From Tetracentron sinense (taxonomy: Eukaryota; Streptophyta; Magnoliopsida; Trochodendrales; Trochodendraceae), in NCBI GenBank assembly GCA_015143295.1, contig CM026570.1, positions 26,357,250 through 26,421,249 on the forward strand: a stretch of 64,000 nt of DNA, written 5' to 3'. Made by a program: the position numbers and the translations under genes. The notes under the pieces are model-generated. The model was not told the DNA's origin. It was given only the letters and a program-made list of their open reading frames with translations, and made no database searches. Below are positions 4,855 to 62,390 of this stretch, one piece after another (the stretch's first letter is position 1; each line of letters begins with the position of its first letter).

Positions 4855-5500
4855 GAGGAAGAAGCATTCCGATCATCATGTTCCATTACGCTTTGGTTCC
4901 TTGTCTTAGTACTACTTGGCTTTCTCCTAAAGTTTCTCCAACGCTCTCAACCAACACCGAAGGTACGATCCAACTGATTTGTATTCTCTTATTCTTTTTT
5001 CTTCTCTAGGTTTTTAAATTTCTTTCATCATCTTATTTCATCTCGTCTCTTTTTTTTTTTTTCATCTTTTTAATTTCAGGAAATGCTCTCCATGGTCTGA
5101 TATTATAATAGATTTGAAAACTCTTTCAAACTTGATGGTATAGTCGTTTGAACAACAATCTGACAGGATGCATTCCTAAAGAGTTCACCTCCCTCTCCAA
5201 CCTCAAAGTTTTGTAAGTTAAAAAATCCCCACATTCATATTTGATTTCAACTATGTAGTTATTTGGTTCCGATTTTTATATGAGTGAGTTTTGACTCTTA
5301 AATTTTATAGTGATGTTTTTGACAATGATCACTGAGGAACGATTGCAATTGATCCTTGTAACAATAGATGATAAGCTTTGCAAAAGCGGGAATACAAGCG
5401 ACACTGAAAGCTTGAACATCAATATTAGGAAGATGGAAGCTTTGTTCTGGTTGTCAGAGGTCTTTGCTCGAAGTCATTTGGAACTTCAAGTGTGTTAAAG
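4855..5500 (+). pseudogene. Short LRR-MCM6 chimeric pseudogene, copy L1
   Basis: Exon 1 codes for a signal-peptide-like stretch ending ..LSTNTEG before a GT splice site (about 4965). An AG-led second exon starts GNALHG, as in small plant LRR proteins (..NSEGDALYALR). The LRR core is missing. A later exon reads GCIPKEFTSLSNLKVL and is followed by DVFDND, matching the family's last repeat and C-terminal cap. The copy ends at about 5430-5495 with EALFWLSEVFARSHLEL, which matches the MCM6 stretch QLEALIRLSEAIARSHLE. There are several stops and no continuous frame. Copies of the same type lie at 43735-44735 and 59990-61030. Function is presumed lost. Confidence 0.75.
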
Positions 5501-6247
5501 CTCAGAACATATCTTACCCTTTTTTACACGATCTATCCACATTGTTTGCTTATGTGGACATTATTTGTTTTTTTATCTGATATGGGATACTTATTCTTTT
5601 CTTATATTTGGTAAAATGAAATTGAATACTTGAAATTCAACAAATCCCTTGAACATGCTGGTATAGAAGTTGAGAAATATAATAATTATATAATATACAC
5701 ATCCGCATTTGATCTGAAAGCATGGAACATCCTGTAATTCATCACTTCATCAAAGATTCTTTATTACTCACTTTTTTTGTTGGTCTTCTATTTTAATTGA
5801 ACTAAATTATATGATTGTCATATTTTTGTGGATGACATTAAATTTCACCTCTTGGTGACTACGATAGATCCATCCTTGAAATAGAGTTTGATCGCAGTTA
5901 GAAGAATTCAGAAATGTGGTGTAAAAGAATGCTAATTATCAAAAGGAAAAAATATTTGCTTTGATTTAATTTGATTTATGTTTAGAATTTGACAACAAAA
6001 TGCTATTCATATTTGGTTGCTTTTTTTGCTTTCATCTTATTGATATTGTGTTATCCATGTTTCGAATTTATGTTTTTTTTATTATTTAGGAATTTATGTT
6101 TTTTTATTATTTAGAAACATGCATAACTAATACTTGCTTGGATGAATATGACACATGGACATGATTTAGGCAAAACTAAAACTTTGGTTGCCCACTTAGA
6201 AACATATTTTAAGCAATAATACCTTTATTCTACCTTATAACACTATT
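5501..6247. other. AT-rich spacer between LRR copies
   Basis: No gene is visible. The stretch is a diverged version of the 5' flank at 4320-4850: it shares TTTCACCTC.TGGTGACTACG.TAGATCCATCCTTGAAA and the AACATGC..AACT..ACTTG...GGATGAATATGACACATG run. This indicates that short and full LRR copies arose by an ancient tandem duplication that included the promoter side. Its mirror lies at 43000-43730 and 59262-59985. Confidence 0.65.
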
Positions 6248-8175
6248 TTCTAGTTTTTTGTATCTTCATCACTTCTTCCTTAGTGAGGAAGAAGCATTCC
6301 AATCACCATCTTCAACGACGCTTTGGTTCCTTGTCTCAGTACTTCTTGGCTTTCTCTTAAAAGTTTCTCCAACGCTCTCAACAAACTCCGAAGGTATGAT
6401 CCAACTTTCACCAATTTCTGTTCTCTTATTCTTCTTTCTTTTCTAGGGTTTTTAGATTTCTTTCATTATCACATCTCATATTATCTCATTTTTTTTTCGT
6501 CTTCTTAATTCGAGGAAATACTCTTCATGCTTTGGGAAGCAGTCTCTCTGATCCCACCAATGTTCTCCAGAGCTAGGACCCTATTTTGGTTAATCCCTGC
6601 ACCTGGTTTCATGTCACCTAAGAGACAAATAATCAAGGTATTCGTCTATAATACGACCCGAATTTTCGGAAGAAATCTTGAGGTCGGGATGACCTTTAAT
6701 TAGCAATAGTAAAAGTGAAGATTAATATTTAATTATATTAGGGTATCACTTTCCCTAATCGGAATCTGTAAAACCTCGGGAAAGAGTTTGGGTTTAACCA
6801 TGGGATCTGGTTATGGGATTTGGTGCTCGATAATTACTAGTGCAACCAGGAGGTAGCCACCAGGTATTCTCGTACTACGTGTCGATCGGATTTACTGGGT
6901 TTTGAGTACCGATTGTACGTTAGCTATGCAAATCGATGCATAATGGAACCAGCATGACGGGTAATCGTTCAGATAGCAGACTGACACGCAGTACGAGAAT
7001 ACCGGGTGGGTGTACCTTCTGGTTTCACCGGTAATTATCGTATACCGAATCCGATAACCAGAACCCGCGGTTAAACCCAAACAGTTTCCTAAGCTTTTAC
7101 GGATTCCGATTAGGGAAAGTGATACCCTAATATAATTAAATATTAATTTTCACGTTAATTATTGTTAATTAAAGGTCATCCTGGCCTCAATATTTCTTCC
7201 GAATATCCGGTTCGTTACCAAATCTTTTCGCTTCAAATTCTCTCTTTTTAACTGAATCATCTCGCCTACATACATTTTCTTTGTTTTTTATCTGTTTCTT
7301 TTATTTGTAGGGATTTGGGCAAGTCTAAATATTTTCGGGACTTTGGGATCGGAGCTCGGTGAACTCCAACATCTTCAGTACGTGTAATTCCATCTCGCTT
7401 GAACTAATTTCAGAAAATGATTTCGTTTTTTTCCTGAATTTCTTTGTCTCCACCTTGGATAAGTTAAAGCTCGTTTTTTTTTGGTAATTATCTTTTTTTT
7501 TTAAATTGTTTGTTTGAGTAATTGTGGGTATGTTGCTTGATCGGTTGTACGGAGCTTTATAGGAACAATATTAGAGGGAGAATCCCTTAGGAATTTGGAA
7601 ATTTGAAGAACCATCTTAGTAAGGATTTATATTGGAACATATTTGAATGAGTAATTCCAAAGTTTTACCAAGTTGAAGTCACTTAAATTTCTGTAAGCAT
7701 ATCTTTTTAATTATTTGGTGATCACCAGTCATGAGTTTTTGAATTTTGCAATACAATGTTAATATTAAAGATTGTCCAATATGCTTACACACTTGAAAAC
7801 TCTTTCAAACTTGATGATACAGTCATCTGATCAACAACAAGCTAACAAGATCCATTCCTAAAGAGTTCACCACCCTCTCCAACCTCAAAGTTTTGTAAGT
7901 TGAAAAATCCCCTTTGATATTTGATTTCAACTATGTAGGCATTTTGTTTAGATTTTATATAAGTGGGTCTTGACTATTGAATGTTACAGCGATGCTTCTA
8001 ACAATGATCTATGCGAAACGATTCCAATTGATCCAAGGAACAACAAATGATAAGCATTACAAAAGCGGGAATACAAGCAACACTAAATGCTTGAACATGA
8101 ATTTTAGCTGCTGCAAACCCAATGTAGGGTCGTTATGACAAGTGAAAATCACTCGAGGTGAGAAGATATTATAAA
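6248..8175 (+). pseudogene. Full-length LRR protein pseudogene with introns, copy L2
   Basis: This resembles a small secreted plant LRR protein of the SERK-ectodomain-like type (about 218 residues, Arabidopsis At5g21090 kind). Exon 1 (6258-6393) ends LSTNSEG before GTATGAT. Exon 2 (about 6514-6640) reads [20 protein letters not shown] and then NPCTWFHVT, the family's N-cap. Later exons carry LGSELGELQHLQ (7330-7380), [12 protein letters not shown] and FGNLKN (7552-7620), SIPKEFTTLSNLKVL (about 7850-7895) and SNNDLCETIPID (about 7990). Intron boundaries (GTAAG.., TTACAG) are kept, so the copy was made at DNA level and not from mRNA. It has multiple stops and a foldback element splits it after exon 2. 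Broken. Confidence 0.8.
6650..7218. mobile_element. Foldback/long-TIR MITE, 569 bp, in LRR copy L2
   Basis: The left end AATACGACCCGAATTTTCGG mirrors the right end, whose reverse complement starts GTAACGAACCGGATATTCGG. Inverted similarity continues for more than 200 bases on each side (GAAATCTTGAGG, TTAGGGTATCACTTTCCCTA, CGTAGTACGAGAATACC), leaving a short loop. The same element lies at the same exon position in copies at 42030-42594 and 58299-58866, and is absent from copy L3 (after 11192). It encodes nothing convincing. Superfamily is undecided because no clear target duplication could be read. Confidence 0.8.
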
Positions 8176-8279
8176 CTTCTTGCCTTGTTTTCTCCTAAAC
8201 TTGTAACTAATGTCAATCATGCATGATATGATGGTTCGAGTATTCGATATTAATATATCATCTACAGTGAATCTAGGCT

Positions 8280-8705
8280 GTGAAAGCATGGAACAATGTG
8301 TCCCTTCCTGCTGCTATCCTTTCAAGGTTTGATGTGGTGTATGTTATGATTGGTGATCTAGACGATCAAACGGATTACCACATTGCTCACCACATCGTAG
8401 GAGTTAATAAAAAGCCTTAAGATGCACTTGCTCCTGCATTCACTACTGTGCTACTAAAGTGTTATATCGTATTTGCGAAGTCTTTGAAACCCAAGGTTTG
8501 TCTACTCTTCCTTGAAATAGGAGCTGATATTCTTTTGTTGGAAAATCCATTTGTTGTGACCCTCACCTCTAGGAAACTTTTGGTGGATTCTTATTTTCCT
8601 CTTCGAAGAGGTGATATAGCTCCTGGGAGTAGTTAGGCAGCTGGAAACTTTGATCAGGCTGTCAGAGGCCTTTGCTCGAAGTCATTTGGAACTTTAGGTG
8701 TGCTA
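8280..8705 (+). pseudogene. MCM6 helicase exon fragments, copy L2
   Basis: MCM6 is a subunit of the MCM2-7 replicative DNA helicase. The plus strand reads [20 protein letters not shown], which includes the SRF arginine-finger motif, then [17 protein letters not shown] and APAFTT...FAKSLKPK up to a GT splice site (about 8492). After an intron it reads [20 protein letters not shown] (about 8568-8630). The piece QLETLIRLSEAFARSHLEL follows in another frame at about 8637-8700. An in-frame stop follows VNKKP, and the link between the last two pieces is lost. The fragment directly follows the LRR copy on the same strand in every full unit, so the two were carried together. Confidence 0.85.
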
Positions 8706-9079
8706 AACCTCACTACATATCTTACCATGTTTTACATGATCTATCCATATTGTTTATTTATTGAGACACTATTTGTTTTTTTTATCTGATAATTGATATG
8801 GAATACTTATTCTTTTCTTATATTCAGTCGAATGAAATTGAATACTTGAAATTCAAGAAACCCCTTGAACATGTCGGTTTAGAAGTTGAGTTCATATAAT
8901 ACACAGATCTGAAAAGCATGGAACATGCTGGTTTAGACTTATTGATATACATGCCTATTTGATCTTCTCATTTATTTTTGTTTTGTTCTTTTGGTGAACC
9001 TTAATTTGATGTATATCACCTTGTTTGCCGCACTGAAAAGTGATCTCTAGTCCAATTATTGAGCGAGCCCTTATTTTAT
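8706..9079. other. 3' flank of the LRR-MCM6 copy
   Basis: No gene is seen. This AT-rich stretch (TTTACATGATCTATCCATATTG, GAATACTTGAAATTCAAGAAA, CTTGAACATG) is shared with 12762-12941, 40730-41060 and 56410-56780, and marks the constant 3' flank of the captured MCM6 part. Confidence 0.6.
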
Positions 9080-9727
9080 TCGCCATGTAGGCAGCATCAA
9101 ATGTTTTTTCAATGTATGTTATGTTGCAGAATGGGGGATACTTGCTAGTGAATGCAGTTTCTACATGGGGTCAAGCATGAATTCCGTTTTTACATGGGGT
9201 CAAGGAAGCAAAACTTCTTGATGTAATTCCATAAGCAGCCCAACCAATAAGGAGGAGACCTCCCTTTTTTTTGGTCTCCTCCCCCCCTCTCTCTCTCAAG
9301 GTCTATAAATAGGGAAAGTTCCCTTACCTCAATCCCAAGTTCACACCCCCCCCCCCTCCCCCCAACAACCGTTGGAAGTTCATACTCACCCAAGCCCCTA
9401 AAGCCTCAACCCTTCTCTCACGGTTAAGCCAAACACCCTAAGAGTTCATTCAACCCTTACTCTCTCATTCTATATCTCACTTCCCTTAACCAAACCCACG
9501 ACACTTAGCAATCTCCCTTCCTCTCGGTTTGCACCTAAGCCAAACACCCACTTCAATGAGGAAGAGCATGAATCTCCACTTCATCGAGCCCCTAGGACTA
9601 TGAGTGAGAGGCCTCTAAAGCCTCGAAGGGCAAAGCCACTTCTTCCAAGGGTAAAGCCCTTTCATATTCTAGGGCACAACTTAGGCATGCCCCTCCTAGT
9701 CATCCAATTCCCAGATTCCATAATGCT
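9080..9727 (+). mobile_element. Degenerate gag-like segment, amino-terminal side, copy 1
   Basis: The segment matches the reverse complement of 40110-40690 and of 53200-53588 plus 56148-56360. In the best copy (minus strand, 53133-53321) the frame starts MSKRPSKASNGKATSSKGKA and continues RFQNDASEGAYNRFMSRL, like the N-terminus of plant gag-like transposon proteins. CT- and C-rich runs at about 9280-9360 lie upstream. The segment stops abruptly at 9727, where it is joined to LRR 5' flank. Broken fossil. Confidence 0.5.
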
Positions 9728-10844
9728 TAAGTCTGGTTGAATATTACCATATGATACTTCACCTTATATTTCTCTCATTCTATAGTGTGCGACTTAAGTT
9801 GCTTCTTGCACATAAAGTGTTTCTTGAGAATGTGATTGAAACTTACTTTATTGTGACTTGAGTTTAATATTTATTCTTTTTAGTTGAGCTGTGACTACCT
9901 TGTTTAGAAAATGAGTCATAATTGATGCAACATCTACTCTTCATTGATATTAAGAAAACATACGTAGGGTTATGATACATGTAGAACAAACACTTGTGAC
10001 TTGACATGAATATTTCTTGTTTAACTTAAAGCATGCTTTGACTTGTTATTTAAATAGAAATTGGAAAACGAAGAAAAAAATATTTATGATATATAGTGTG
10101 CGACTTAAGTTACTACTTGCACCTAAAGTGTTTCTTGAGAATGTTATTGAAACTTTCTTTATTGTGGCTTGAGTTCGATATTTATTCTTTTTAGTTGAGC
10201 TGTGACTAACTAATTCAGAAAATGAGTAATAATTGATGAAACATCTACTCTACATTGATACTAAGAAAACATATGTAGGATTATGATGCCAAAATAATCA
10301 ACCTCTAATTCTTCGGTTAATTCAATACCTGTAATTCATTACTTCATTATAGATTTTTTAGAATTCACCATCTTTACCGATATTTTATTTTGATTGAACT
10401 AATATATATGATTGTCATATTTTTATTTTGATATCATTGAGTTTCACCTCACGGTGACTACAGTAGATCCATGCTTGAAAAAGAGTTTGAACCGTTAGCA
10501 TTCACAAATATCGTGTAAAAGAATGCCAATTACTAAAAGAAAAACAGATTTGATTTAATTTGACTTATGTTTAGAAATGGGTTTCAAAATACTATTAATA
10601 TTTGCTTCCTTTTTTTTTTTGTTTTAATCTTACTGATGTCATGTAATCCATATTTCAAATTTATGATTTTTTTGTTTAGAAACATGCTTAACTTAAACAT
10701 TTGTTTGGATGAATATGACACATAGACATGATGTAGGCAAAACTAAAACTTTGTTTGCCAACTTAGAAAATATTTTAAGCAATAAAACCTTAATTCTAAA
10801 TTAAAACACTATTTTCTAGTTTCTTCCTATCTTCATGACTTCTT
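9728..10844. repeat. 5' flank of LRR copy L3, duplicate of 3738-4855
   Basis: This 1.1 kb stretch is the same sequence and length as 3738-4855, from AAGTCTGGTTGAATATTACC to the GAGGAAGAAGCATTC run of exon 1. It is therefore the short-copy flank. No independent gene is present. The left junction at 9727/9728 lies inside the gag-like segment, so it is a rearrangement breakpoint. Confidence 0.8.
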
Positions 10845-12280
10845 CATTAGTGAGGAAGAAGCATTCTGATCATCATGTGAAATTACGCTTTGGTTCCTTT
10901 GGCTTTCTCCTAAAGTTTTTCCAACGCTCTCAACAAACTACGAAGGTACGATCCAACTGATTTGTATTCTCTTATTCTTTTTTCTTCTCTAGGGTTTTTA
11001 GATTTCTTTCATCATCTCATCTTGTTTCTTTTTTTTTTTGTCTTTTTAATTTCAGGAAATGCTCTCCATGCCTTGAGAAGTAGACTCTCTGACCCCACCA
11101 ATGTTCTCCAGAGCTCGGGCCCCACAGTGGATAATCCCTGCACCTGGTTCCATGTCACCTGCGACGTAACTAACCATGTTATTCGTCTCTAAGATAGATA
11201 ATGCTTTCACCTTCAAATTCTCTTATAACTGAATCTTCTCACCTATATACGTTTTCTTGGTTTTTATCTTTTTTAATTATCTGTCGGGATTTGGGCAGTT
11301 CTAATATTTCTAGGACTTTGGGATCGAAGCTCGGCGAGCTCAAGCATCTTAATATAACGTTTTTGGGACGTTGGGATCGGAGCTCCGTGAACTCCAACAT
11401 CTACAGTACTTGTAATTCCATCTCGCTTGAACTAATTTCAGAAAATGATTCCCTTTTTTTCTTGAATTTCTTTGTCTCCACCTTGGATATGTTAAAGCTC
11501 TGTTTTTTTTTGGTAATTATCTTTTTTTTTAAATTGTTTGTTTTAGTAATTGTGGGTATGTTGCTTGATCGGTTGTAGGGAGCTTTATAGGAACAATATT
11601 AGGGGGAGAATCCCTTAGGAATTTGGCAATTTGAAGAACCATCTTAGTATGGATTTATATTGGAACATATTTTGATGAGAAATTTCATAATTTTACTAAG
11701 TTGAAGTCACTTAAATTTCTGTAAGCATATCTTTTTAATTAGTTGGTGATCACCAGTCATGAGTTTTTGAATTTTGCAATACAATGTTAATATTAAAGAA
11801 TTTCTGATATGCTAACACACTTGAAAACTCTTTCAAACTCGATGATACAGTCGTCTGATCAACAACAAGCTGACAGGATCCAGTCCTAAAGAGTTCACCA
11901 CCCGACCTCAAAGTTTTGTAAGTTGAAAAATCCCCTTTGATATTTGATTTCAACTATGTAGGTATTTTGTTTAGATTTTATATAAGTGGGTCTTGACTAT
12001 TAAATGTTACAGCGATGCTTCTAACAATGATCTATGTGAAACGATTCCGATTGATCTAAGGAACAACAAATGATAAGCATTACAAAAGCGGGAATACAAG
12101 CGACACTAAATGCTTGAACATCAATTTTAGCTGCTGCAAACCCAATGTAGGGTTGTTATGACAAGTCAAAATCACTCGAGGTGAGAAGATATTGTAAACT
12201 TATTGCCTTGTTTTCTCCTAAGCTTGTAACTAATGTCAATCATGCATGATATGATGGTTCGAGTATTCGATATTAATATA
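10845..12280 (+). pseudogene. LRR protein pseudogene, recombinant copy L3
   Basis: This has the best-preserved second exon in the window: about 11055-11190 reads [20 protein letters not shown] and [20 protein letters not shown] further exon (11288-11350) reads SNISRTLGSKLGELKHL. The copy then switches at about 11361-11364 and repeats the same exon in the full-copy form (LGRWDRSSVNSN in another frame, from GGGACGTTGGGATCGG). Later exons follow the full type (about 11580-11640, 11850-11920, 12012-12070). It lacks the foldback element. Its 5' half matches the short copies and its 3' half the full copies, so it is a crossover product. Stops and the duplicated exon make it non-functional. Confidence 0.8.
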
Positions 12281-12299
12281 TCATCTACAGTGAATCTAG

Positions 12300-12761
12300 G
12301 CTGTGAAAGCATGGAACAATGTGTCCCTTCCTCCTGCTATCCTTTCAAGGTTTGGTGTGGTGTATGTTATGATTGGTGATCTAGACGATCAAACGGATTA
12401 CCACATTGCTCACCACATCGTGTGAGTTAATGAAAAGCATGAAGATGCACTTGCTCCTGCATTCACTACTGTGCTACTAAAGTGTTATATCGTATTTGCG
12501 AAGTCTTTGAAACCCAAGGTTTGTCTACTCTTCCTTGAAATAGGAGGTGAGATTCTGTTGTTCGAAAATCCATTTGTTGTACCCCTCACCCATTTAAAAA
12601 TTTTTCAAATTCACACAGCTCAGCTAAGAACCTAGGAAACTTTTGTTGGATTCCTATGTTGCTCTTCGTAGAGGGGATAAAGCTCCTGGGAGTAGTTAGG
12701 CAGCTGGAAACTTTGATCAGGCTATCAAAGGCCTTTGCTCGAAGTCATTTGGAACTTTAGG
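12300..12761 (+). pseudogene. MCM6 exon fragments, copy L3
   Basis: It has the same order as at 8280-8705: [20 protein letters not shown], then [12 protein letters not shown], an in-frame stop, [13 protein letters not shown] and FAKSLKPK before an intron. Next come RKLLLDSYVALRRG-like coding (about 12630-12680) and the QLETLIRLSKAFARSHLEL stretch (about 12695-12757). The D of the conserved SRFD is G here. The copy retains 'NFQIHTAQLRT'-like intronic bases (about 12595-12630) that copy L2 has lost. Its right end is at 12941, where unrelated segment C begins. Confidence 0.8.
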
Positions 12762-12941
12762 TGTGTTAAACCTCACAACATATCTTACCATGTTTTACAT
12801 GATCTATCCATATTGTTTATTTATTGAGACATTATTTGTTTTTTTTTATCTGATAATTGATATGAAACACTTATTCTTTTCTTTTATTCTGTTGAATGAA
12901 ATTAAATACTTGAAATTCAAGAAACCCCTCGAACATGCCGG

Positions 12942-13009
12942 TTCTCAAATCGGGCATTAGATATTATTTGGTTCAATGAGTTAACATTGGGTTAGCTAGG
13001 GATAGTATA
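12942..13009. repeat. Left remnant of segment C
   Basis: CTCAAATCGGGCATTAGATA and GGTTCAATGAGTTAACATTG match 23174-23240. Segment C breaks off at 13009 at the gypsy LTR and resumes at 18047 with sequence like 23820, so about 590 bases of C are missing around the retroelement. Confidence 0.75.
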
Positions 13010-18046: not shown

Positions 18047-18155
18047 CTTGAGTTTCTTTTAAGGGGATTGGAGAACTTTTCTCAAGGATTGCTACTCAGA
18101 AAACGTAGAAGAGCTTAGGGTTTTTCATATTTTTAAGGTTTGAACTTTCGGTGAT
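18047..18155. repeat. Segment C remnant, right of the gypsy element
   Basis: TGAGTTTCTTTTAAGGGGATTGGAGAAC and the following bases match 23822-23930. Bases 18143-18155 are the left target duplication of the adjoining LINE. Confidence 0.75.
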
Positions 18156-28977: not shown

Positions 28978-29147
28978 GCGTAGCGGCCTGTATCAAGCCA
29001 TATCGAACTGTATCGGTCCGATACGCACGATACGGTCTCGATACGCTGTATTTTCTTCGTTCCAGCGTATCTGGGTATCGGGTACTCGAAAAACCGGTAC
29101 GTATCGGCCCGTATCGACCGATACGTATCAATATTTTGAACCATGGT
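28978..29147. mobile_element. hAT-like terminus (GATACG family), left arm
   Basis: Dense GATACG/CGTATC repeats end in CAATATTTTGAACCATGG, the same terminus as the right end of the 677-2682 element. The opposite terminus was not found, so this is a single-ended relic or part of a larger rearranged copy. Mirror: 35166-35335. Confidence 0.7.
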
Positions 29148-40729: not shown

Positions 40730-42990
40730 ACGGCGAATAAAATAAAGGTTCAGTAATTGGACTAGAGATCATTTTTAAGTGGCGAAACAAGTTGATATAC
40801 ATCAAATTAAGGTTCACTAAAAGAACAAAACAAAAAAATCAAAAATAAATGAGAAGATCAAATAGGCATGTATATCAATAACTCTAAACCAGCATGTTCC
40901 ATGCTTTTCAGATCAAATAGACATGTGTATTATATTAACTCAACTTCTAAACCGGCATGTTCAAGGGGTTTCTTGAATTTCAAGTATTCAATTTCATTCT
41001 ACTGAATATAAGAAAAGAATAAGTATTCCATATCAATTATGAGATTAAAAAAACAAATAATGTCTCAATAAATAAACAATATCTTCTCACCTCGAGTAAT
41101 TTTGACTTGTCATAATGACCCTTCATTGGGTTTGCAGCAGCTAAAATTATTGTTCAAGCATTTAGTGTTGCTTGTATTCCCGCTTTTGTAATGCTTATCA
41201 TTTGTTGTTCCTTGGATCAATTGGAATCGTTCCGCACAGATCATTGTTAGAAACATCGCTATAACATTCAATAGTTAAGACCCACTTATATAAAATCTAA
41301 ACCAAATACCTACATAGTTGAAATCAAATATCTAAGGGGATTTTTCAACTTACAAAACTTTGAGGTTGGAGAGGGTGGTGAACTCTTTAGGAATGGATTC
41401 TGTCAGCTTGTTGTTTATCAGACGACTATATTATCAAGTTTGAAAGTGTTTTCAAGTGTGTTAGCGTATCAGACAATCTTTAATACAAACATTGTACTAC
41501 AAAATTCAAAAACTCATGACTGGTGATCTCCAACTAATTAAAAAGATATGCTTACAGAAATTCAAGTGACTTCAACTTAGTAAAAGCTTTGGAATTTCTC
41601 ATTCAAATATGTTCCAATATAAATCAATGCTAAGATGATTCTTCAAATTGCCAAATTCGTAAGGGATTCTCCCTCTAATATTGTTCCTATAAAGCTCCCT
41701 ACAACCGATCAAGTAACATAACCTCAATTACACAAACAAACAAATTTTAAAAAAAGATAATTACCAAAAAAAAAACAGAGCTTTAACTTATCGAAGGTGG
41801 AGACAAAGAAATTCAAGAAAAAAACGGAATCATTTTATGAAATTAGTTCAAGAGAGATGGAATAACAAGTATTGAAGATGTTGGAGTTCACCGAGCTCCG
41901 ATCCTAAAGTCCCAAGAATATTTAGAATTGCCCAAATTCCTATAGATAAAAGAAAAAGATAAAAACCAAGAAAACATATGTAGACGAGATGATTCAGTTA
42001 AATAGAGAGAATTTGAAGAAAAAGATTACGTAACGACCCGGATTTTCGAAAGAAATCTTGAGCCAGGATGACCTTTAATTAACAATAATTAAAGTGAAGA
42101 TTAATATTTAATTATATTAGGGTATCACTTTCCCTAATCGGAAATCGTAAAACCACAGGAAAGTGTTTGGGTTTAATCACGGGTTCTGGATATCAGATTC
42201 GGTATTCGATAATTACCAGTGAAACCAGGAGGTACCCACCCGGTATTCTCATACTACGTGTCAGTCTGCTATCTGAACGATTACTCGTCATGCTGGTTCC
42301 ATTATGCATTGATTCGCACAGCCACTTTGCAAGTGGTGCTCAAAACCAAGTAAATCCAACCGACACGTACTACGAGAATGCCTGGTGGTACCTCCTGGTT
42401 TCACTGGTAAATATCGAACAACGAATCCAAAAACCAGATCCCATGGATAAACCTAAACACTTTTCCGAGGTTTTACGGATTCCGATTAAGGAAAGTGATA
42501 CCCTAATATAATTAAATATGAATCTTCACTTTAATTATTGCTAATTAAAGGTCATCCTGGCCTGAAGATTTCTTCCGAAAATTCTGGTCATCTTACAGAT
42601 GAATAACTTGGTTATTTGTGTCTCAGGTGACATCAAACCAGGTGCAGGGATTAACCAAAATAGGGTCCCAGCTCTGGAGAACATTGGTGGGATCAGAGAG
42701 TCTGCTTCTCAAAGCATGGAGAGAATTTCTTGGAATTAAGAAGACGAAAAAAAATGAAATGATATGAGATGTGATGATGAAAGAAATCTAAACAGTCTAG
42801 AAAAGAAAGAAGAATAAGAGAACAAAAATTGGTAAAAGTTGGATCGTACCTTCCGAGTTTGTTGAGAGCGTTGGAGAAACTTTTAGGAGAAAGCCAGGTA
42901 GTACTGAGACAAGGAACCGAAGCGTCATTGAAGATGGTGATTGGAATGCTTCTTCCTCACTAAGGAAGAAGTGATGAAGATACGAAGAAA
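40730..42990 (-). pseudogene. Full LRR pseudogene with MCM6 part deleted, copy R2
   Basis: On the minus strand it has the same exons as copy L2: exon 1 near 42850-42965, exon 2 near 42610-42725 (NPCTWFDVT-like, CTGGTTTGATGTCACC), then LRR exons near 41875-41935, 41640-41705, 41340-41410 and 41210-41260. The foldback element splits it at 42030-42594. The MCM6 exons are missing: intron sequence before them joins flank sequence after them at 41078-41082, where both parents share ATATT. Many stops. Non-functional. Confidence 0.8.
42030..42594. mobile_element. Foldback/long-TIR MITE in copy R2
   Basis: It starts GTAACGACCCGGATTTTCG and has the same long inverted arms as 6650-7218, at the same place after LRR exon 2. 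A 114-codon frame across it (42167-42511) is a by-product of the repeat. Confidence 0.8.
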
Positions 42991-43734
42991 CTAGATAATA
43001 GTGTTTTATGGTACAATAAAGGTTTTATTGCTTAAAATATGTTTCTAAGTGGGCAAACAAAGTTTTAGTTTTGCCTAAATCATGTCCATGTGTCATTTCA
43101 TCCAAGCAAGTGTTAGTTATGCATGTTTTTAAGTAATAAAAAAACCATAAATTCTAAACATGGATATCACAATATCAATAAGATTAATGCAAAAAAAAAG
43201 CAACTAAATATGAATAGCATTTTGATGCCCAATTTTAAACATAAATCAAATTAAATCAAAGCAAATATTTTTTTCATTTTAATAATTGGCATTATTTTAC
43301 ACGACATTTGTGAATTCTTCTAACTGCGATCAAACTCTATTTCAAGCATGGATCTATCGTAGTCACTTAGAGGTGAAATTCAATGACTTCCAAAAAAATA
43401 TGACAATCATATAAATTAGTTCAATTAAAATAGAAGACCAGTAAAAAATGTGAGTAATAAACAATCTTTGATGAAGTAATGAATTACAGGATATTTCATG
43501 CTTTCAGTATATTATATAATTATTATATTTCTCAACTTCTGTACCAACATCTTCAAGGGATTTATTGAATTTCAAGTATTCAATTTCGTTTTACCAAATA
43601 TGAGAAAAGAATAAGTATCCCATATCAGATAAAAAAAAAATAATGTCCACATAAGCAAACTAAGTGGATTGAACGTGTAAATAGTGGTAAGATATGTTCT
43701 GAGTTTTAAAACACTTGAAGTTCCAAATGACTTC
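42991..43734. other. AT-rich spacer between LRR copies, right inner
   Basis: Mirror-type homologue of 5501-6247. No gene is seen. Confidence 0.6.
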
Positions 43735-44735
43735 GAGCAAAGACCTCTGACAGCCTGATCAAAGCTTCCAGCTTCCTAAAATTGATGTTAAAGCATTAAG
43801 TGTCGCTTGTATTCCAACTTTTGCAATGCTTATCATCTATTGTTCCATGGATCAATTGGAATCGTTCCTCAGTGATCATTGTTAGAAACATCACTATAAT
43901 ATTTAAGAGTCAAGACTCACTCATATAAAATCATAACCAAATAACTACATACTTGAAGTCAAATATGAAAGGGGGGATTTTTTAACTTAAAAAACTTTGA
44001 AGTTGTAGAGGGAGGTGAACTCTCTAGGAATGGATCCTGTCAGCTTGTTGTTGTTTAGACGACTATACCATAAGTTTGAGAGAAATTTCGAGTCTGTTAT
44101 AATATCAGACCATCTTTAATATAAACATTATATTACAAGAACTGAAGATGCTCGAGCTCGCCGAGCTTCGATCCCAAAGTCCCAAAAATATTAGAATTGC
44201 CCAAATCCCGGGAGACAATTAAAAAAGATAAAAACCAAGAAAACGTATATTTTTTTTAATCGAAAAATCAAGAAAACGTATATAGGCGAGAAGATTCAGT
44301 TATAAGAGAATTTGAAGGTGAAAGCTTTATCTATCTTAGAGACGAATAACATGGTTATTTACGTCTCAGGTGACATGGAACCAGGTGCAGGAAATATCCA
44401 GTGTAGGGCCCCAGCTCTGGAGAACATTGGTCGGGTCAGAGAGTCTACTTCTCAAGGCATGGAGATCATTTCTTGAAATTAAAAAGATGAAAAAAAAAAA
44501 AGAGAGACGAGATGAGATGATGAAAGAAATCTAAAAACCCTTGAGAACAAAAAAGAATAAAAGAATACAAATCAGTTGGATCATACCTTTGGAATTAGTT
44601 GAGAGCGTTGGACAAACTTTTAGGAGAAACCAAGTAGTAGTAAGAGAAGGAACCAAAGAGCCATTCAAGATGGTCATTGTAATGCTTCTTTCCCTCTTAG
44701 GAAGAAATGATGAAGATATGAAGAAACTAGAAATA
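43735..44735 (-). pseudogene. Short LRR-MCM6 chimeric pseudogene, copy R1
   Basis: On the minus strand, exon 1 lies near 44590-44700, exon 2 near 44355-44470 (TGGTTCCATGTCACCTGAG, CATGCCTTGAGAAG), the LGSKLGELEHLQ exon near 44140-44200, the KEFTSLYNFKV-like exon near 43985-44055, and the MCM6 tail (SEVFARSHLE-type) near 43735-43790. It has the same layout as 4855-5500 but keeps more of the LRR exons. Broken. Confidence 0.75.
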
Positions 44736-45478
44736 GTGTTTTAAGGTAGAATTAAGGTTTTATTGCTTAAAATATTTTCTAAGTAGGCAAACGAAGTTTT
44801 AGTTTTGCATACATCATGTCTATGTGTCATATTCATCCAAACAAGTGTTTATGTTAAGCATGTTTCTAAACAAAAAATCATAAATTCGAAACATGGATAA
44901 CATAACATCAGTAAGATTAAAGCAAAAAAAAAAGTAACCAAGTATGAATAGTATTTTGATGCCCTTTTCTAAACATAAGTCAAACTAAATCAAATCTGTT
45001 TTTCTTTTAGTAATTAGCATTCTTTTACACGATATTTGTGAATTCTTACTGTTCGAACTCAATTTCAAGCATGGATCTATTATAGTGACCGAGAGGTGAA
45101 ATTCAATGATATCCAAATAAAAATATGACAATCATATATATTAGTTCAATCAAAATGAAATATCCGTAAAGATGGTGAATAATAAACAATCTATGATGAA
45201 GTAATGAATTACATGTATTGAATTAACCGAAGAATTAGAGGTTGATTATTTTGGCATCATAACCCTAGTTATGTTTTCTTAGTATCAATGTAGAGTAGAT
45301 GTTTCATCAATTATGACTCATTTTCTGAATTAGTTAGTCACAGCTCAACTAAAAAGAATAAATATTGAACTCAAGCCACAATAAAGTAAGTGTCAATAAC
45401 ATTCTGAAGAAACACTTTAGGTGCAAGAAGCAACTTAAATCGCACACTATAGAGTGAGAGAAATATGAGGTGAAGTAT
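44736..45478. repeat. 5' flank of LRR copy R1
   Basis: Reverse-complement match to 3738-4850. It is interrupted at 45479 by a GATACG-rich element instead of reaching the gag-like segment directly. Confidence 0.7.
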
Positions 45479-52214: not shown

Positions 52215-53150
52215 ATGGGTAAAGATTCCTTGTTGGAATTCCATCATCACCCAAACATATCTCTAATTATCCAACTGTCACCTTCAAGTAATCTCAAATT
52301 AAGACTATTTTGGTGGAATCAAAATAATTAGGTTACTGTTCAGTGATAAATGAAATCCTCAGGTCTAAGAATTCACAGATCAAGTTTCTGGTAATTGAGT
52401 GAACGTCTAAATGATAGTAACTTAAAAACCAAATGTCTCTCCGGATGATGCAATCAGTTAGTGTACAATTAAGCACTCATATGTCGATGGGTAGTTAACA
52501 CTCCAATAGCTCGAGATAAAGCCATATCTCAAGTACTAAGAACATCCAATGTTGTGTCTTGTGCTTTTATTTTCCTTTTGGCTGTCCTGTAGGGGTGTGC
52601 CAAACCCCCACTCTTTCTAAGTGGCTTTTAAAAAAAAAAAATCCAAACATTGTGGCAGGCATCTAAGTGAAGTGTCCAACTTCACCCATAACTGTGACTA
52701 ATTTTGGCAGAGGAAATGAAAAGCTAAATCTATCAAAGTTGGCCCGTGGCCAAACACTTCGCTTTTCTCTACAATTTGTTCTAAGGACCTTTCCTCGGTA
52801 TCTCATACCGCGTTGATCATCTCATGATCGGTATATAGTCAACCACCTATAATGAATGCAATAAAGAAAGCATAGACAACAATATTAATCAAATTAATAT
52901 TGTCTTACAAGTAAATGACTTTTCTAGGGCACTTAGTCTAACAAATAATTCGTCAAAGAGGACTTTCCGCGGGTTGGAGCAGTTAGCAAGCATCCCGAGT
53001 TAGGTTCCCATGGTTGTGTGTTCAAATACCACTCTTCCACTTACCATGGTGCCCGTAGGGAAATTTTGAGTGTTTTGGAACGAACACTCAATTGGACTAG
53101 TCCTTGCCTCGAAGGTTTTGGGACAACCACCATTACCAAAAAAATAAGAT
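52215..53150. repeat. Unassigned 0.95 kb unit segment, right outer copy
   Basis: Direct-orientation homologue of 39126-40110, more diverged than the mirror pair of the inner arms. It follows the gag-like N-terminal frame on the minus strand. Confidence 0.75.
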
Positions 53151-53588
53151 AGGCAGGCGGGACATGAATCGATTGTAGGCACCCTCACTGGCGTCATTTT
53201 GGAATCTGGGAATTGGATGAGTAGGAGGGGCATGCCTAAGTTGTGCCCTAGAATATGACAGTGCTTTACCCTTGGATGAAGTGGCTTTGCCATTCGAGGC
53301 TTTAGAGGGTCTCTTACTCATAGTCCTAGGGGCTCGATGAAGTGGAGATTCATGCTCTTCCTCATTTAAGTGGGTGTTTGGCTGGGGTGCAAACCGAGAG
53401 GAAGGGAGGTTGCTAAGGGTTGTGGGTTTGGTTAAGGGAAGTGAGATATAGAATGAGAGAGTAAGGGTTGAATGAACTCTTGGGGTGTTTGGCTTAACTG
53501 TGAAAGAAGGGTTGAGGCTTTAGGGGCTTGGATGTGTAAGAACTCCCAAGGGTTGTTAGGGGGGTGTGAACTTGGGATTGAGGCGAGG
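53151..53588 (-). mobile_element. Degenerate gag-like segment, amino-terminal side, best copy
   Basis: The minus frame (53133-53321) reads MSKRPSKASNGKATSSKGKA and RFQNDASEGAYNRFMSRLP, a Ser/Lys-rich start followed by the 'RF...A..Y...' motif of plant gag-like transposon proteins. The segment continues on the far side of the solo LTR (56148-56360). Family assignment is tentative. Broken. Confidence 0.5.
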
Positions 53589-56147: not shown

Positions 56148-56780
56148 TCCCTATTTATAGACCTTGAGAGAGAGAGAGGGGGGGGGGGGGAGGAGACCAA
56201 AAAAGAGATAGGTCTCCTCCGTAATGCTTGGGCTGCTTATGGAAGTACATCAAGAAGTTTTGATTCCTTGACCCCATGTCAAAACGGAATTCATGCTTGA
56301 CCCCATGTAAAAACTGAATTCACTAGTAAGTATCACCCATTCTGCAACATAACATACATTGAAAAAACATTTGATGTTGCCAACACGGAGAATAAAATAA
56401 AGGCTCAATAATTCGACTAGAGATCATTTTTTAGTGCGGAAAACAAGGTGATATACAACAAATTAAGGTTCACCAAAAGAACAAAACAAAAAAAATCAAA
56501 AATAGATGAGAAGATCAAATAAGCATGTATATCATTAAGTCTAAACCAGCATGTTCCATGCTTTTCAGATCAAATAGACATGTGTGTTATATTAACTCAA
56601 CTTCTAAACCGGCATGTTCAAGGGGTTTCTTGAATTTCAAGTATTCAATTTCATTCTACTGAATATAAGAAAAGAATAAGTATTCCATATCAATTATCAG
56701 ATAAAAAAAACAAATAATGTCTCAATAAAAAAACAATATGGATAGATCATGTGAAACATGGTAAGATATGTTGTGAGGTT
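56148..56780. other. Remainder of gag-like segment and MCM6 3' flank
   Basis: 56148-56360 continues the gag-like segment after the solo LTR, with a GA run and a G run near 56165-56190. 56400-56780 is the constant 3' flank of the MCM6 fragment, as at 8706-9079. Confidence 0.6.
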
Positions 56781-56784
56781 TAAC

Positions 56785-57246
56785 ACACCTAAAGTTCCAA
56801 ATGACTTCGAGCAAAGGCCTCTGACAACCTGATCAAAGTTTCCAGCTGCCTAACTACTCCCAGGAGCTGTATCACCTCTACGAAGAGCAACATAGGAATC
56901 CACCAAAAGTTTCCTAGCTTCTCAGCTGAGCTGCGTGAATTTGAAAATTTTTTAAAGGGGTGAGGGTTACAACAAATGGATTTTCGAACAAAAGAATATT
57001 ACCTCCTATTTCAAGGAACAGTAGACAAACCTTGGGTTTCAAAGACTTCACAAATACTATATAACACTTTAGTAGCACAGTAGTGAATGCAGGAGCAAGT
57101 ATATCTTCATGCTTTTTATTAACTCTCACAATGTGGTGAGTAATGTGGTAATCCGTATGATCGTCTAGATCACCAATCATAACATACACCAGATCAAACC
57201 TTGAAAGGATAGCAGGAGGAAGGGACACATTGTTCCATGCTTTCAG
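56785..57246 (-). pseudogene. MCM6 exon fragments, best-preserved copy R3
   Basis: The minus strand reads [20 protein letters not shown], then [20 protein letters not shown] and [20 protein letters not shown] without a stop (57246-57010), up to the GT splice site. SRFD is the arginine-finger motif of MCM helicases. After the intron, [14 protein letters not shown]-like coding (about 56910-56875) and QLETLIRLSEAFARSHLE (about 56850-56795) follow. The Walker A and B regions are absent, so it cannot be an active helicase. The uninterrupted first exon makes this the least decayed copy. Confidence 0.9.
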
Positions 57247-57339
57247 AGCCTAGATTCACTGTAGATGATATATTAAAATCGAATACTCGAACCATCATAT
57301 CATGCATGATTGACATTAGTTACAAGCTTAGGAGAAAAC

Positions 57340-59260
57340 AAGGCAATAAGTTTAAAATATCTTGTCACCTCGAGTGATTTTGACTTGTCATAATGACCCT
57401 ACATTAGGTTTCCAGCAGCTAAAATTGATGTTCAAGCATTTAGTGTTGCTTGTATTCCCACTTTTGTAATGCTTATCATTTGTTGTTCCTTGGATCAATT
57501 GAAATCATTTCGCATAGATCATTGTTAGAAGCATCACTGTAACATTCAATAGTCAAGACCCACTTATATAAAATCTAAACAAAATACCTACATAGTTGAA
57601 ATCAAACATCGAAGGGGATTTTTCAACTTACAAAACTTTGAGGTTGGAGAGGGTGGTGAACTCTTTAGGAATGGATCCTGTCAGCTTGTTGTTGATCACA
57701 TGACTGTATTATCAAGTTTGAAAGAGTTTTCAAATGTGTTAACATATCAGACAATCTTTAATATTAACATTGTATTGCAAAATTCAAAAACTGATGACTG
57801 GTGATCACCAACTAATTAAAAAGATATGCTTACAGAAATTTAAGTGATTTCAACTTAGTATAACTTTGGAATTTCTCATTCAAATATGTTCCAATATTAA
57901 TCCATACTAAGATGGTTCTTCAAATTGCCAAATTCCTAAGGGATTCTCCCTCTAATATTGTTTTTATAAAGCTCCCTACAACCGATCAAGCAACATACCA
58001 ACAATTACTCAAACAAACAATTTAAAAAAAAAGATAATTACTGAAAAAAAACAGAGCTTTAACTTATCGAAGGTGGAGACAAAGAAATTCAAGAAAAAAA
58101 CGGAATTATTTTCTGAAATTAGTTCAAGCGAGATGGAATTACAAGTACTGAAGATGTTGGAGTTCACTGAGCTCCGATCCCAAAGTCCCAAAAATATGCC
58201 CAAATCCCTACAGATAAAAGAAACAAATAAAAACCAAGAAAACGTATGTAGGCGAGATGATTCAGTTAAAAAGAGAGAAGTTGAAGCGAAAAGATCATGC
58301 AACGAACTGGATTTCGGAAGAAATCTTGAGGCAAGGATGCCCTTTAACTAATAATAATTAAAGTGAAGATTAATATTTAATTATATTAGGGTATCACTTT
58401 CCCTAATTGGAATCCGTAAAACCTCGGGAAAGTATTTGGGATTAACCGCGGGTTCTGGTTATCGGATTCGGTATTCGATAATTACCAGTGAAACCAGGAA
58501 GTACACCCACCCGGTATTCTCGTACTACGTGTGAGTCTGCTATTTGAATGATTACCCGTCATGCTGGTTCCATTATGTATCGATTCGCACAACCATCGTG
58601 CAATCGGTACTCAAAACCCAGTAAATCCGACCGACACGTAGTACGAGAATACTTGGTGGGTACCTCCTGCTTTCACTAGTAATTATCGAACACCGAATCC
58701 CATAACCAGATCCGACGGTTAAACTCAAACACTTTTCCGAGGTTTTACGGATTCCGATTAGGGAAAGTGATACCCTAATATAATTAAATATTAATCTTCA
58801 CTTTAATTATTGTTAATTAAATGTCATCCTGACCTCAAGATTTCTTCCGAAAATTCGGGTCGTATTATAGACGAATAACTTGGTTATTTGTGTCTTAGGT
58901 GACATGAAACCAAGTGCAGGGATTAACCAAAATAAGGTCCCAGCTCTGGAGAACATTGGTGGGAGCAGAGAGTCTGCTTCTCAAAGCATGGAGAGCATTT
59001 CCTAGAATTAAGTAGACGAAAAACGAAAAAGAGATGATATGAGATGTGATGTGATGATGAAAGAAATGTAAAAACCCTAGAAAAGAAAGAAAAATAAGAG
59101 AACAGAAATTGGTGAAAGTTGGATCATACCTTCGGAGTTTGTTGAGAGCGTTGGAGAAACTTTTAGGAAAAAGCCAGGTAGTACTGAGACAAGGAACCGA
59201 AGCGTCGTTGAAGATGGTGATTGGAATGCTTCTTCCTGACTAAGGAAGAAGTGATGAAGA
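57340..59260 (-). pseudogene. Full LRR protein pseudogene, copy R3
   Basis: Same exon order as copy L2, on the minus strand: exon 1 near 59135-59230, exon 2 near 58885-59005 (GGTTTCATGTCACC), the LGIFLG / SVNSNIFST exon region near 58140-58215, then [10 protein letters not shown] near 57890-57975, SIPKEFTTLSNLKVL near 57610-57680 and NNDLCEMI near 57500-57545. The foldback element lies at 58299-58866. Broken by stops. It is followed directly by the MCM6 fragment. Confidence 0.8.
58299..58866. mobile_element. Foldback/long-TIR MITE in copy R3
   Basis: It starts GCAACGAACTGGATTTCGG and ends AAAATTCGGGTCGTATT. Its arms correspond to those of 6650-7218. Presence at the same site in three copies shows insertion before the units multiplied. 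Confidence 0.8.
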
Positions 59261-59989
59261 TACGAAAAAATTAGAAAATAGTGTTATAAGGTAGAATAAA
59301 GGTTTTATTGCTTAAAATATTTTTCTAAGTGGGCAAACAAAGTTTTAGTTTTGCCTAAATCATGTCCATGTGTCATTGATCCAAGCAAGTGTTAGTTATG
59401 CATGTTTCTAAATAATAAAAAAAACATAAAATATCAATAAGATTAAAGCAAAAAAGGCAACCAAATATGAATAGCATTTGATGCCCAATTCTAAACATAA
59501 ATCAAATTAAATCAAAGCAAATATTTTTTCCTTTTAATAATTGGCATTCTTTTACAGGACATTTGTTAATTCTTCTAACTGCGATCAAACCCTATTTCAA
59601 GCATGGATCTATCATAGTCACCTAGAGGTGAAATTCAATGACATCCAAAAAAATATGTCAATCATATAAATTAGTTCAATTAAAATAGAAGACCAATAAA
59701 ACGTGTGAGTAATAAACAATCTTTGATGAAGTAATGAATTACAGGATGTTCCATGATTTCATATCAAATGCGGATGTGTATTATATTATATAATTATTAT
59801 ATTTCTCAACTTCTATACCAGCATGTTCAAAGAATTTTTTGAATTTCAAGTATTCAATTTCATTTTACCGAATATAAGAAAAGAATAACTATCCCATATC
59901 AGATAAAAAAAGAAATAATGTCCACATAAGCGAACAATGTGGATAGATCGTGTAAAAAATGGTTAGATATGTGCTGAGCTTTAACACAC
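59261..59989. other. AT-rich spacer between LRR copies, right outer
   Basis: Homologue of 5501-6247 on the minus strand. No gene is seen. Confidence 0.6.
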
Positions 59990-61030
59990 CTGAAGTTCCA
60001 AATGACTTCGAGGAAAGACCTCTAACAACCTGATCAAAGCTTCCAGCTTCCTAAAATTGATGTTCAAGCATTTAGTGTCGCTTGTATTCCCGCTTTTGCA
60101 ATGCTTATCATCTATTGTTCCATGGATCAATTGGAATCGTTCCTCAGTGATCATTGTCAGAAATATCAGTATGATATTTAAGAGTCAAGACTCACTCATA
60201 TAAAATCAGAACCAAATAACTATATAGTTGAAATCAAATATGAAAGTGGGGATTTTTTAATATTTAAGAATCAAGATTCACTCATATAAAATTAGAACCA
60301 AATAACTAAATAGTTGAAATCAAATATGAAAGTGGGGATTTTTAAACTTACAAGAGGTTGGAGAGGGAAGTGAACTCTCAAGGAATGGATCCTGCCAACT
60401 TGTTGTTGTTCTAATGAATATACCATCAAGTTTGAAAGAGTTTTCAAATCTGTTATAATATCAGACCATCTTTAATACAAACATTATATTACAAGAACTG
60501 AAGATGCTCGAGCTTGCCGAGCTCCGATCCCGAAGTCCCAGAAATATTAGAATTGCCCAAATCCCGACAGATAATTAAAAAAGATAAAAACCAAGAAACC
60601 GTATATAGGCGAGAAGATTCAGTTATAAGAGAATTTGAAGGTGAAAGCATTATCTATCATAGAGACGAATAACATGGTTATTTACGTCGCAGGTGACATG
60701 GAACCAGGTGCAGGGATTATCCAGTGTAGGGCCCCAGCTATGGAGAACATTGGTGGGGTCAGAGAGTCTACTTCTCAAGGCATGGAGAGCATTTCCTGAA
60801 ATTAAAAAGACGAAAAAAAAAGAGAGACGAGATTAGATGATGAAAGAAATCTAAAAACCCTAGAGAAGAAAAAAGAATAAGAGAATACAAATTAGTTGGA
60901 TCGTACCTTCGTAGTTAGTTGAGAGCGTTGGAGAAACTTTAGGAGAAAGCCAAAGGAACCAAAGCATAATTTAACATGATGATCGGAATGCTTCTTCCTC
61001 ATTAACGAAGAAGTGATGAAGATAGGAAGA
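59990..61030 (-). pseudogene. Short LRR-MCM6 chimeric pseudogene, copy R4
   Basis: Exon 1 near 60900-61010, exon 2 near 60680-60800 (TGGTTCCATGTCACCTGCG), the LGSELGKLEHLQ exon near 60495-60555 and the MCM6 tail near 59990-60050. A ~75-bp stretch (TCACTCATATAAAAT.AGAACC..GTTGAAATCAAATATG) is tandemly duplicated at 60190-60350. Broken. Confidence 0.75.
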
Positions 61031-61900
61031 AACTAGAAAATAGTGTTTTATGGTAGAATTAAGGTTTTATTGCTTAAAATATTTTCTAAGTTGGCAAACA
61101 AAGTTTTAGTTTTGCCTACATCATGTCTACGTGTCATATTCATCCAAACAAATGTTTAAGTTAAGCATGTTTCTAAACAAAAAAATCATAAATTTGAAAT
61201 ATGGATTACATGACATCAGTAAGATTAAAACAAAAAAAAAAGGAAGCAAATATGAATAGTATTTTAATACCCATTTCAAAACATAAGTAAATTAAATCAA
61301 ATCTGTTTTTCTTTTAGTAATTGGCATTCTTTTACACGATATTTGTGAATTCTTACGGTTCAAACTCTATTTCAAGCATGGATCTACTGTAGTCACCGAG
61401 AGGTGAAATTCAATGATATCAAATTAAAAATATGACAATCATATATATTAGTTCAATCAAAATAAAATATCGGTAAAGACGGTGAATACTAAAAAATCTA
61501 TAATGAAGTAATGAATTACAGGTATTGAATTAACCAAAGAATTAGAGGTTGATTATTCTGGCATCATAACCCTACTTATGTTTTCTTACTATCAATGTAG
61601 AGTAGATGTTTCATCAATTATTACTCAAATTTTGAATTAGTTAGACACAGCTCAACTAAAAAGAATAAATATTGAACTCAAGCCACAATAAAGTAAATTT
61701 CAATAACATTCTCTGGTAAACACTTTAGGTGCAAGAAGTAACTTAAGTCACACACTATATATCATAAATATTTTTTTCGTCATTTTCCAATATCTATATT
61801 AAATAATAAGTCAAAGCATGCTTTAAGTTAAACAAGAAATATTCATGTCAAGTCACAAGTGTTTGTTCTACATGCATCATAATCTTACTTATGTTGTCTT
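61031..61900. repeat. 5' flank of LRR copy R4
   Basis: Reverse-complement match to about 3985-4850. It ends at a T-rich join (TTTTTCTTTTTTGATAGATA, 61902-61920) to a partial LRR copy. Confidence 0.7.
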
Positions 61901-61964
61901 TTTCTTTTTTGATAGATAACGAGAACATTTATTAAAGAACAGAGAATATACAAACGATGTGAGA

Positions 61965-62390
61965 AGATTCAGTTATAAAAGAATTTGAAGGTGAAAGCAT
62001 TATCTATCTTAGAGACGAATCACATGGTTATTTACATCACTGGTGACATGGAACCAGGTGCAGGGATTATCCAGTGTAGGGCCCGAGCTTTGGAGAACAT
62101 TGGTGAGGTGAGAGAGTCTGCTTCTCAAGGCATGGAGAGCATTTCCTGAAATTAAAAAGACAAAAAAAAAGAAAAAAGAGATGAGATTAGATGATGAAAG
62201 AAATCTAAAAACCCTAGAGAAGAAAAAAGAATAAGAGAATACAAATCAGTTGGATCGTACCTTCGGAGTTAGTTGAGAGCGTTGGAGAAACTTTAGGAGA
62301 AAGCCAAAGGAACCAAAGCGTAATTGAACATGATGATCCGAATGCTTCTTCCTCACTAACGAAGAAGATATGAAAATAGGAGAAAACTAG
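61965..62390 (-). pseudogene. Partial LRR copy R5 (first two exons only)
   Basis: Exon 1 near 62265-62365 and exon 2 near 62030-62150 (ATGCCTTGAGAAGCAGACTC, TGGTTCCATGTCACC) are of the short-copy type. The rest is missing beyond 61965. At 61905-61960 the sequence TAATAAATGTTCTCGTTATC (minus strand) looks like a LINE or retroposon tail at the breakpoint. Confidence 0.65.

What the first reader, a model, noticed from the sequence alone, without database searches (positions are those of the whole stretch)
4855..62390. Amplified chimera of two captured host genes: LRR protein plus MCM6
Seven or more copies (L1-L3, R1-R5) join exons of a small secreted LRR protein to MCM6 exons in the same order and orientation, with introns and 5' flank retained. 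The parents encode an extracellular repeat protein and a replicative helicase subunit, so this is a capture and not a family. I could not find the carrier's terminal signature; a Helitron, Pack-MULE or large rearranged retroelement are all possible. Such a unit could be a named, unrecorded gene-capturing element.
Basis: partly seen in the sequence, partly recalled or inferred. Interest (0 to 1): 0.8.

Follow-up and report, generated by a model that had tools for sequence, protein, structure and literature searches.

The report
Locally amplified three-gene pseudogene array
Broken pieces of at least three unrelated plant genes were once joined together and then copied in place about 25 times on one chromosome; the copies are decayed, and they look like local duplicates rather than a new jumping element.

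Summary
The window has seven copies of one identical LRR|MCM6 join, introns included. The closest relatives found lie on different chromosome-size contigs: a SERK-ectodomain-like LRR gene at C6:37.226 Mb and MCM6 at C3:0.875 Mb. So this fuses unlinked genes, not neighbours. I found a third source, an IPI1/TEX10-like gene at C10:31.911 Mb; all three pieces run in sense. The copies are not dispersed: 25 MCM6-bearing places lie in C20:25.92-26.45 Mb, three in C8:33.10-33.14 Mb, and one 2.3-kb fragment without recognisable element ends at C20:32.99 Mb. Strict, limited scans showed no Helitron-type end or inverted terminal repeat. The LRR frame meets a stop at about the sixth codon past the join, and all eight window LRR pieces are broken, so no fusion protein is expected. 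Best reading: one ancestral three-gene composite pseudogene, joined by capture or break repair (unresolved), then amplified in place as a macro-repeat (13 of 20 same-strand spacings are 10-18 kb) by tandem and inverted duplication. The 'named, unrecorded gene-capturing element' is not supported, though an eroded Helitron that made the original join is not excluded. Modest interest.

The parts
2683..3698 (+). Module U, upstream of the LRR piece; holds a 66-bp MCM6 exon/intron fragment (2842-2907) and IPI1/TEX10-like fragments (3276-3461, 3450-3527)
   Evidence: the only matches outside the arrays are the C3 and C10 sources
3582..3840 (+). Further IPI1/TEX10-locus fragment (C10:31.9150 Mb), collinear and same strand
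   Evidence: 66% over 280 bp; 69% over 192 bp, 81.5 bits against a shuffle maximum of 45.5 in 200
4806..5094 (+). LRR gene 5' end (source C6:37.227 Mb)
   Evidence: 69%
5095..5518 (+). 'Mini' chimera: LRR exons 5-6 (to 5353) joined to MCM6 (5357-5518, internal deletion)
6239..6651 (+). LRR exons 1-2 of the full chimera
6653..7215 (+). Palindromic MITE-like insertion in LRR intron 2 (also 42033-42589, 58312-58863)
   Evidence: 58312-58852 matches itself inverted, 82%; MITE label by shape only
7222..8032 (+). LRR exons 3-6 of the full chimera
   Evidence: 80-82% to L070; frameshifts and stops
8037..8749 (+). MCM6 exons (P-loop domain end and lid) with introns
   Evidence: 70-71% overall to C3:874.3-875.1 kb; PF00493 for 8277-8417
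9240..9725 (+). Promoter/leader and gag-like stretch following the chimera
   Evidence: of 36 matches, 27 in the C20 array, 4 in C8, 2 at C20:32.99 and 3 weak ones of 71-105 bp elsewhere; no Pfam match for 9402-9737; gag and promoter labels are recalled
10800..12055 (+). LRR part of second unit (no MITE)
12060..12812 (+). MCM6 part of second unit
   Evidence: 74-75% to L069
41081..41211 (-). MCM6 part of right-hand full unit (first exon only, rest deleted)
41216..43007 (-). LRR part of right-hand full unit, with MITE-like insertion 42033-42589
43685..44742 (-). Mini chimera: MCM6 43685-43848, LRR 43851-44742
56755..57489 (-). MCM6 part of far-right full unit
57494..59285 (-). LRR part of far-right full unit, with MITE-like insertion 58312-58863
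59960..61049 (-). Mini chimera: MCM6 59960-60123, LRR 60126-61049
61936..62403 (-). Extra LRR 5' piece without junction

Best explanation
Fragments of three unlinked genes (a small SERK-ectodomain-like LRR gene, MCM6, and an IPI1/TEX10-like gene) were joined, introns included and all in sense orientation, into one composite. The LRR|MCM6 join was a single event, out of frame, with about 2 bases (CC, by eye) at the seam that neither source explains. The composite decayed, was duplicated in tandem (mini + full) and collected nested transposons. The resulting macro-unit was amplified locally on C20 by tandem and inverted segmental duplication, with a small array on C8 that branches early. Shown: sources, unlinkage, single junction, broken frames, local distribution. 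Inferred: what joined the pieces (Helitron-type capture, or patchwork repair of a double-strand break), and unequal crossing-over as the amplifier.
For: Sources: LRR on C6 (a C2 paralogue is farther, best 421 bits and 65-68% against 835 bits and 74-81% for the long matches); MCM6 on C3; IPI1-like on C10 (200 shuffles of the region reach at most 45.5 bits against 125 observed). Source identity. One junction in all 39 strings aligned. All 8 window LRR pieces examined lack exons, a start codon or splice sites, or carry frameshifts or stops. Frameshift or stop in 16 of 16 distinct MCM6 exon-C copies, 6 of 14 exon-B copies and 23 of 34 LRR exon-2 copies. Local distribution: 25 of 31 matches in C20:25.92-26.45 Mb, 1 at C20:32.99, 4 at three C8 places, 1 the C3 source; 22 array matches of 23, the other being C10 itself. 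Spacing of 20 same-strand neighbours runs 4.0-21.0 kb, 13 of them 10-18.1 kb. Three full window copies differ from each other by 4.6-6.3%, less than from the sources (introns 0.15-0.17 LRR, 0.28 MCM6), so amplification is younger than capture.
Against: All-sense orientation of three genes with introns is also what a Helitron would give, and degraded ends in a tandem array could escape my scans. Searches with R2/G (40 of 6286 candidates scored), Q (40 of 1723) and the 3' part (40 of 58) were capped, so absence elsewhere is not shown for those modules. Substitution ratios below 1 for several exons (copy-to-source dN/dS about 0.17-0.25; 0.15-0.81 to the source, 0.58-1.15 among copies for exons 3-5) leave room for some past constraint, part of which must lie on the source branch; 8 of 14 MCM6 exon-B copies are still open. 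A C8 array needs at least one long-distance transfer or a shared ancestry of the two loci.
Confidence: 0.82

Rival explanations
1. A Helitron captured the three gene pieces (same sense, introns kept) and landed once; its ends are now eroded or buried, and only the landing site was amplified.
For: Three unlinked sources in one orientation with introns; same-sense, intron-bearing multi-gene capture is recalled as typical of Helitrons.
Against: No CTRR end with GC-rich hairpin in 2300-13100, either strand, by a strict scan (stems of 7-11, no mismatch); the scan also found 0 in 10 shuffles per strand, so it has little power. No dispersed copies.
Confidence: 0.3
2. An LTR retroelement transduced the pieces (Bs1-like) and formed a tandem array in which the promoter/leader 9240-9725 is part of the LTR.
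For: A TATA-containing leader and a gag-like ORF lie 3' of MCM6 and recur through the arrays, so copies bracket the chimeras.
Against: No LTR boundaries or primer-binding site recognised by eye; introns retained; no Pfam match for the ORF; not found outside the arrays and the C20:32.99 fragment except for 3 weak short hits.
Confidence: 0.1
3. A Pack-MULE or other TIR element carries the pieces.
For: Pack-type elements capture fragments of many genes (passages of PMC13317346; that they keep introns is recalled).
Against: No exact 11-base inverted match between the three pairs of flanks tested; not dispersed.
Confidence: 0.05
4. Assembly artefact (false duplication or haplotypes stacked).
For: Dense repeats, inverted order, and a few near-identical copies.
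Against: Three full window copies differ by 4.6-6.3%, with different insertions and module deletions per unit.
Confidence: 0.03

Closest known systems
Helitron / Pack-TIR transduplicates of gene fragments (plants)
   Same: Several unlinked gene fragments joined; mostly non-functional (PMC13317346, passages); introns kept (recalled)
   Different: Not dispersed, no ends seen; amplified only in place. By contrast the abstract of PMC11986588 describes Helitron captures spread evenly over the Brassica napus genome
Maize Bs1 retrotransposon (fragments of three genes; passage of PMC13317346)
   Same: Three host-gene pieces in one composite
   Different: Here introns are kept, the LRR-MCM6 fusion is out of frame, and no LTR pair was recognised; Bs1 pieces being intron-less is recalled
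Tandem gene-cluster amplification with non-homologous joins, e.g. maize P1-wr (PMC2686159, passages)
   Same: Chimeric join attributed to end-joining with filler DNA, local array growth and recombination
   Different: The array here is of a dead composite of unrelated genes, with inverted blocks

Membership tests
Helitron gene capture | 5' TC, 3' hairpin + CTRR, insertion between A and T | tested here: inconclusive
   Strict scan of 2300-13100 for the 3' end found none, but also 0 in 10 shuffles per strand, so it has little power; 5' end and insertion site not tested
Helitron gene capture | Copies at dispersed loci | tested here: not met
   (all candidates scored)
Helitron gene capture | Several genes, introns kept, same sense | tested here: met
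Pack-MULE | Long TIRs | tested here: inconclusive
   no exact 11-base inverted match between three pairs of flanks; degenerate TIRs or other end positions not excluded
Pack-MULE | 9-bp target duplication | not testable with these tools
   no empty site available
LTR retroelement transduction (Bs1-like) | Two LTRs, PBS and PPT around the captured pieces | tested here: inconclusive
   leader copies recur through the arrays; no LTR edge or PBS recognised by eye in the sequence
LTR retroelement transduction (Bs1-like) | Captured pieces intron-less | tested here: not met
   introns present and aligned
Local tandem/segmental duplication array | Copies clustered, shared internal junction, no shared element ends | tested here: met

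The most novel reading that the evidence does not exclude
The array is not mere debris: inverted blocks of sense fragments of an LRR gene, MCM6 and IPI1 make double-stranded RNA whose small RNAs act on the three source genes, so a dead composite became a trans-acting regulator kept by copy number. Exact 21-mers shared by sources and fetched array copies cover 198 of 1281, 74 of 1411 and 19 of 4281 positions (LRR, MCM6, IPI1 stretches). No transcript or small-RNA data were available.
Probability: 0.06. Interest if true: 0.75.

Novelty: new member of a known kind. Interest (0 to 1): 0.33.

Why it matters
It is a clear case in which a multi-gene chimera that looks like an unrecorded capturing element turns out to be amplified in place. 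It shows that copy number alone should not be read as mobility, and it gives a relative order of events: capture, decay, doubling, local amplification.

Tried and rejected
Fusion protein: rejected; the LRR frame meets a stop at about the sixth codon after the join in the 39 aligned strings (read by eye) and the window frames are broken. Parents as neighbours: rejected (C6, C3 and C10). A giant mirror on C20, suggested by the order of copies and written as a note, was not supported: the best mirror sums gather only 4 pairs and the tree does not pair the two blocks, so I do not claim it; a local inverted repeat in the window is real. A lost paralogue as donor was considered from exon dN and dS and dropped after the intron/exon comparison, where one of the four LRR copies has exons no closer to the source than introns. 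Literature: the listings (4 of 4 papers; 12 of 21; 10 of 27) show no title or abstract start naming an LRR-MCM6 array; outlines with abstracts were seen for PMC3060143 and PMC11986588, passages for PMC13317346 and PMC2686159. One search returned nothing because the files were not where the script looked; redone. One search timed out; redone.
Full report
Setting. The window is G000:C20:26357250-26421249 of an unnamed 1.16-Gb genome in 1479 contigs. I could not name the species; the gene content looks plant-like.

The observation. Self-comparison shows long direct and inverted matches, mostly 78-98%. Against source loci, window pieces match the LRR gene at C6:37226138-37227388 (minus strand) and MCM6 at C3:874301-875125 (minus strand), introns included. 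There are seven LRR|MCM6 junctions in the window. In 39 distinct strings from window and fetched loci (hits covering under 86 bases of the 130-base probe were dropped) the join is at the same place, so the fusion most likely happened once. The C6 gene reads open over the six exons examined (182 codons up to the junction) and aligns in one stretch with SERK1, SERK2 and BAK1 ectodomain chains, although larger LRR receptors score higher by repeat number. A paralogue at C2:7.412 Mb is farther from the array. Two C3 exons match the MCM and MCM_lid models; against solved structures the top two hits are archaeal MCM/Cdc21 entries and the best eukaryotic one is MCM6. I did not check the C3 gene over its full length.

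A third source. Sequence just upstream of the LRR piece (window 3276-3840) matches C10:31.911-31.915 Mb in three collinear blocks on the same strand, 69-77% in one comparison, 66-76% in another. The top score is 125 bits against a maximum of 45.5 in 200 second-order Markov shuffles. A genome search with 361 bases of the C10 locus gave 23 matches: the locus itself, 20 in the C20 array and 2 in the C8 array. An open frame of the C10 gene carries Ipi1_N (PF12333) at 31.5 bits, above its cut-off of 24. A 66-bp MCM6 exon/intron fragment (60.8 bits) lies in the same module at window 2842-2907. All three source genes run in sense with the composite.

Not mobile in any visible way. With a 301-base junction/MCM6 probe, 25 of 31 matches lie in C20:25.92-26.45 Mb, one at C20:32.99 Mb, four at three C8 places (33.10-33.14 Mb), and one is the C3 source. 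Module U with the 5' flank gave 45 matches, all in the arrays except two at the C10 source and one at the C3 source. The leader gave 36: 27 in the C20 array, 4 in C8, 2 at C20:32.99 and 3 weak ones of 71-105 bp elsewhere. The gag-like ORF gave 40, all in the arrays or at C20:32.99. The listed matches of R2/G and of the chimera's 3' part are also all in the arrays or at C20:32.99, but those lists were capped. Dispersed transposon pieces sit inside the units: 20475-22104 is found all over the genome (LTR-like), and about 710 bp of module Q is dispersed. The isolated copy at C20:32.9865-32.9888 Mb begins inside module G and stops at the edge of an LRR intron, so it is a piece of array and not a unit with ends. 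Scans for a Helitron-type end and for inverted terminal repeats found none, but both were strict and of little power.

Coding state. The LRR frame meets a stop at about the sixth codon after the join (read by eye). All eight LRR pieces examined in the window have missing exons, frameshifts, stops, lost start codons or lost splice sites (forced global alignments). Across fetched copies, 16 of 16 distinct MCM6 exon-C copies, 6 of 14 exon-B copies and 23 of 34 LRR exon-2 copies have a frameshift or stop (only copies covering at least 90% of the exon and at most 97% identical to the source were counted). Substitution ratios for short LRR exons run from 0.15 to 1.15 on few sites, which does not settle past constraint. 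Jukes-Cantor distances to the sources are, for LRR (four copies), exons 0.12-0.15 and introns 0.15-0.17, and for MCM6 (three copies), exons 0.16-0.17 and introns 0.28. By my estimate that is about what neutral decay in the array and constraint in the source would give; in one of the four LRR copies exons and introns do not differ.

History. Three full window copies differ by 4.6-6.3% from each other, less than from the sources, so amplification is younger than capture. A tree of 22 array copies and the C6 source puts one C8 copy first and the second C8 copy with one of two C20 groups; 7 of 20 inner branches have strong support and 8 are open. Three copies (C20:26.0001, 26.0631 and 26.0728 Mb) are near-identical over the stretch compared, so growth continued recently. 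Of 20 same-strand neighbour spacings, 13 are 10-18.1 kb and the whole range is 4.0-21.0 kb; runs alternate in orientation.

Judgement. But the evidence points to local duplication of one composite pseudogene, not to a new class of carrier. What first joined the pieces stays open: Helitron-type capture fits the shared sense orientation and the introns; break repair fits the seam with two extra bases and the absence of dispersed copies.

Noticed in passing
window 24198-29375 and 34928-40081: Inverted repeat of about 5.2 kb (94.6%), each arm with two blocks of a roughly 99-bp tandem repeat (25156-25953, 27396-28188; 36117-36885, 38327-39124).
   Followed up: partly
window 26193-26729 (+) and 37551-38087 (-): 178-residue ORF open in both arms (97%) and in a third copy at C20:26085721 (93%); no Pfam match; its last 50 residues or so recur at C5 and C14, with weaker hits at C8 and C3.
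   Followed up: partly
window 53133-53519 (-): 128-residue gag-like ORF (label recalled) without stops in several array copies; found only in the arrays and at the C20:32.99 fragment.
   Followed up: partly
window 15859-18081 (-): 740-residue open frame of a Ty3-type retrotransposon with RNase H and integrase zinc-binding domains and sub-threshold integrase-core and chromodomain matches.
   Followed up: no
window 14804-15424: About 25 copies of a 25-bp tandem repeat inside long open frames.
   Followed up: no
window 53595-56141 (-): About 2.5-kb solo-LTR-like insertion (TG...CA, apparent 5-bp duplication AGTTC, read by eye) splitting the leader; related sequence in the C8 array at 76-78%.
   Followed up: no
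L076 1002-3325: Isolated 2.3-kb array fragment at C20:32.9865 Mb abutting copia-like RNase H sequence (label recalled).
   Followed up: partly
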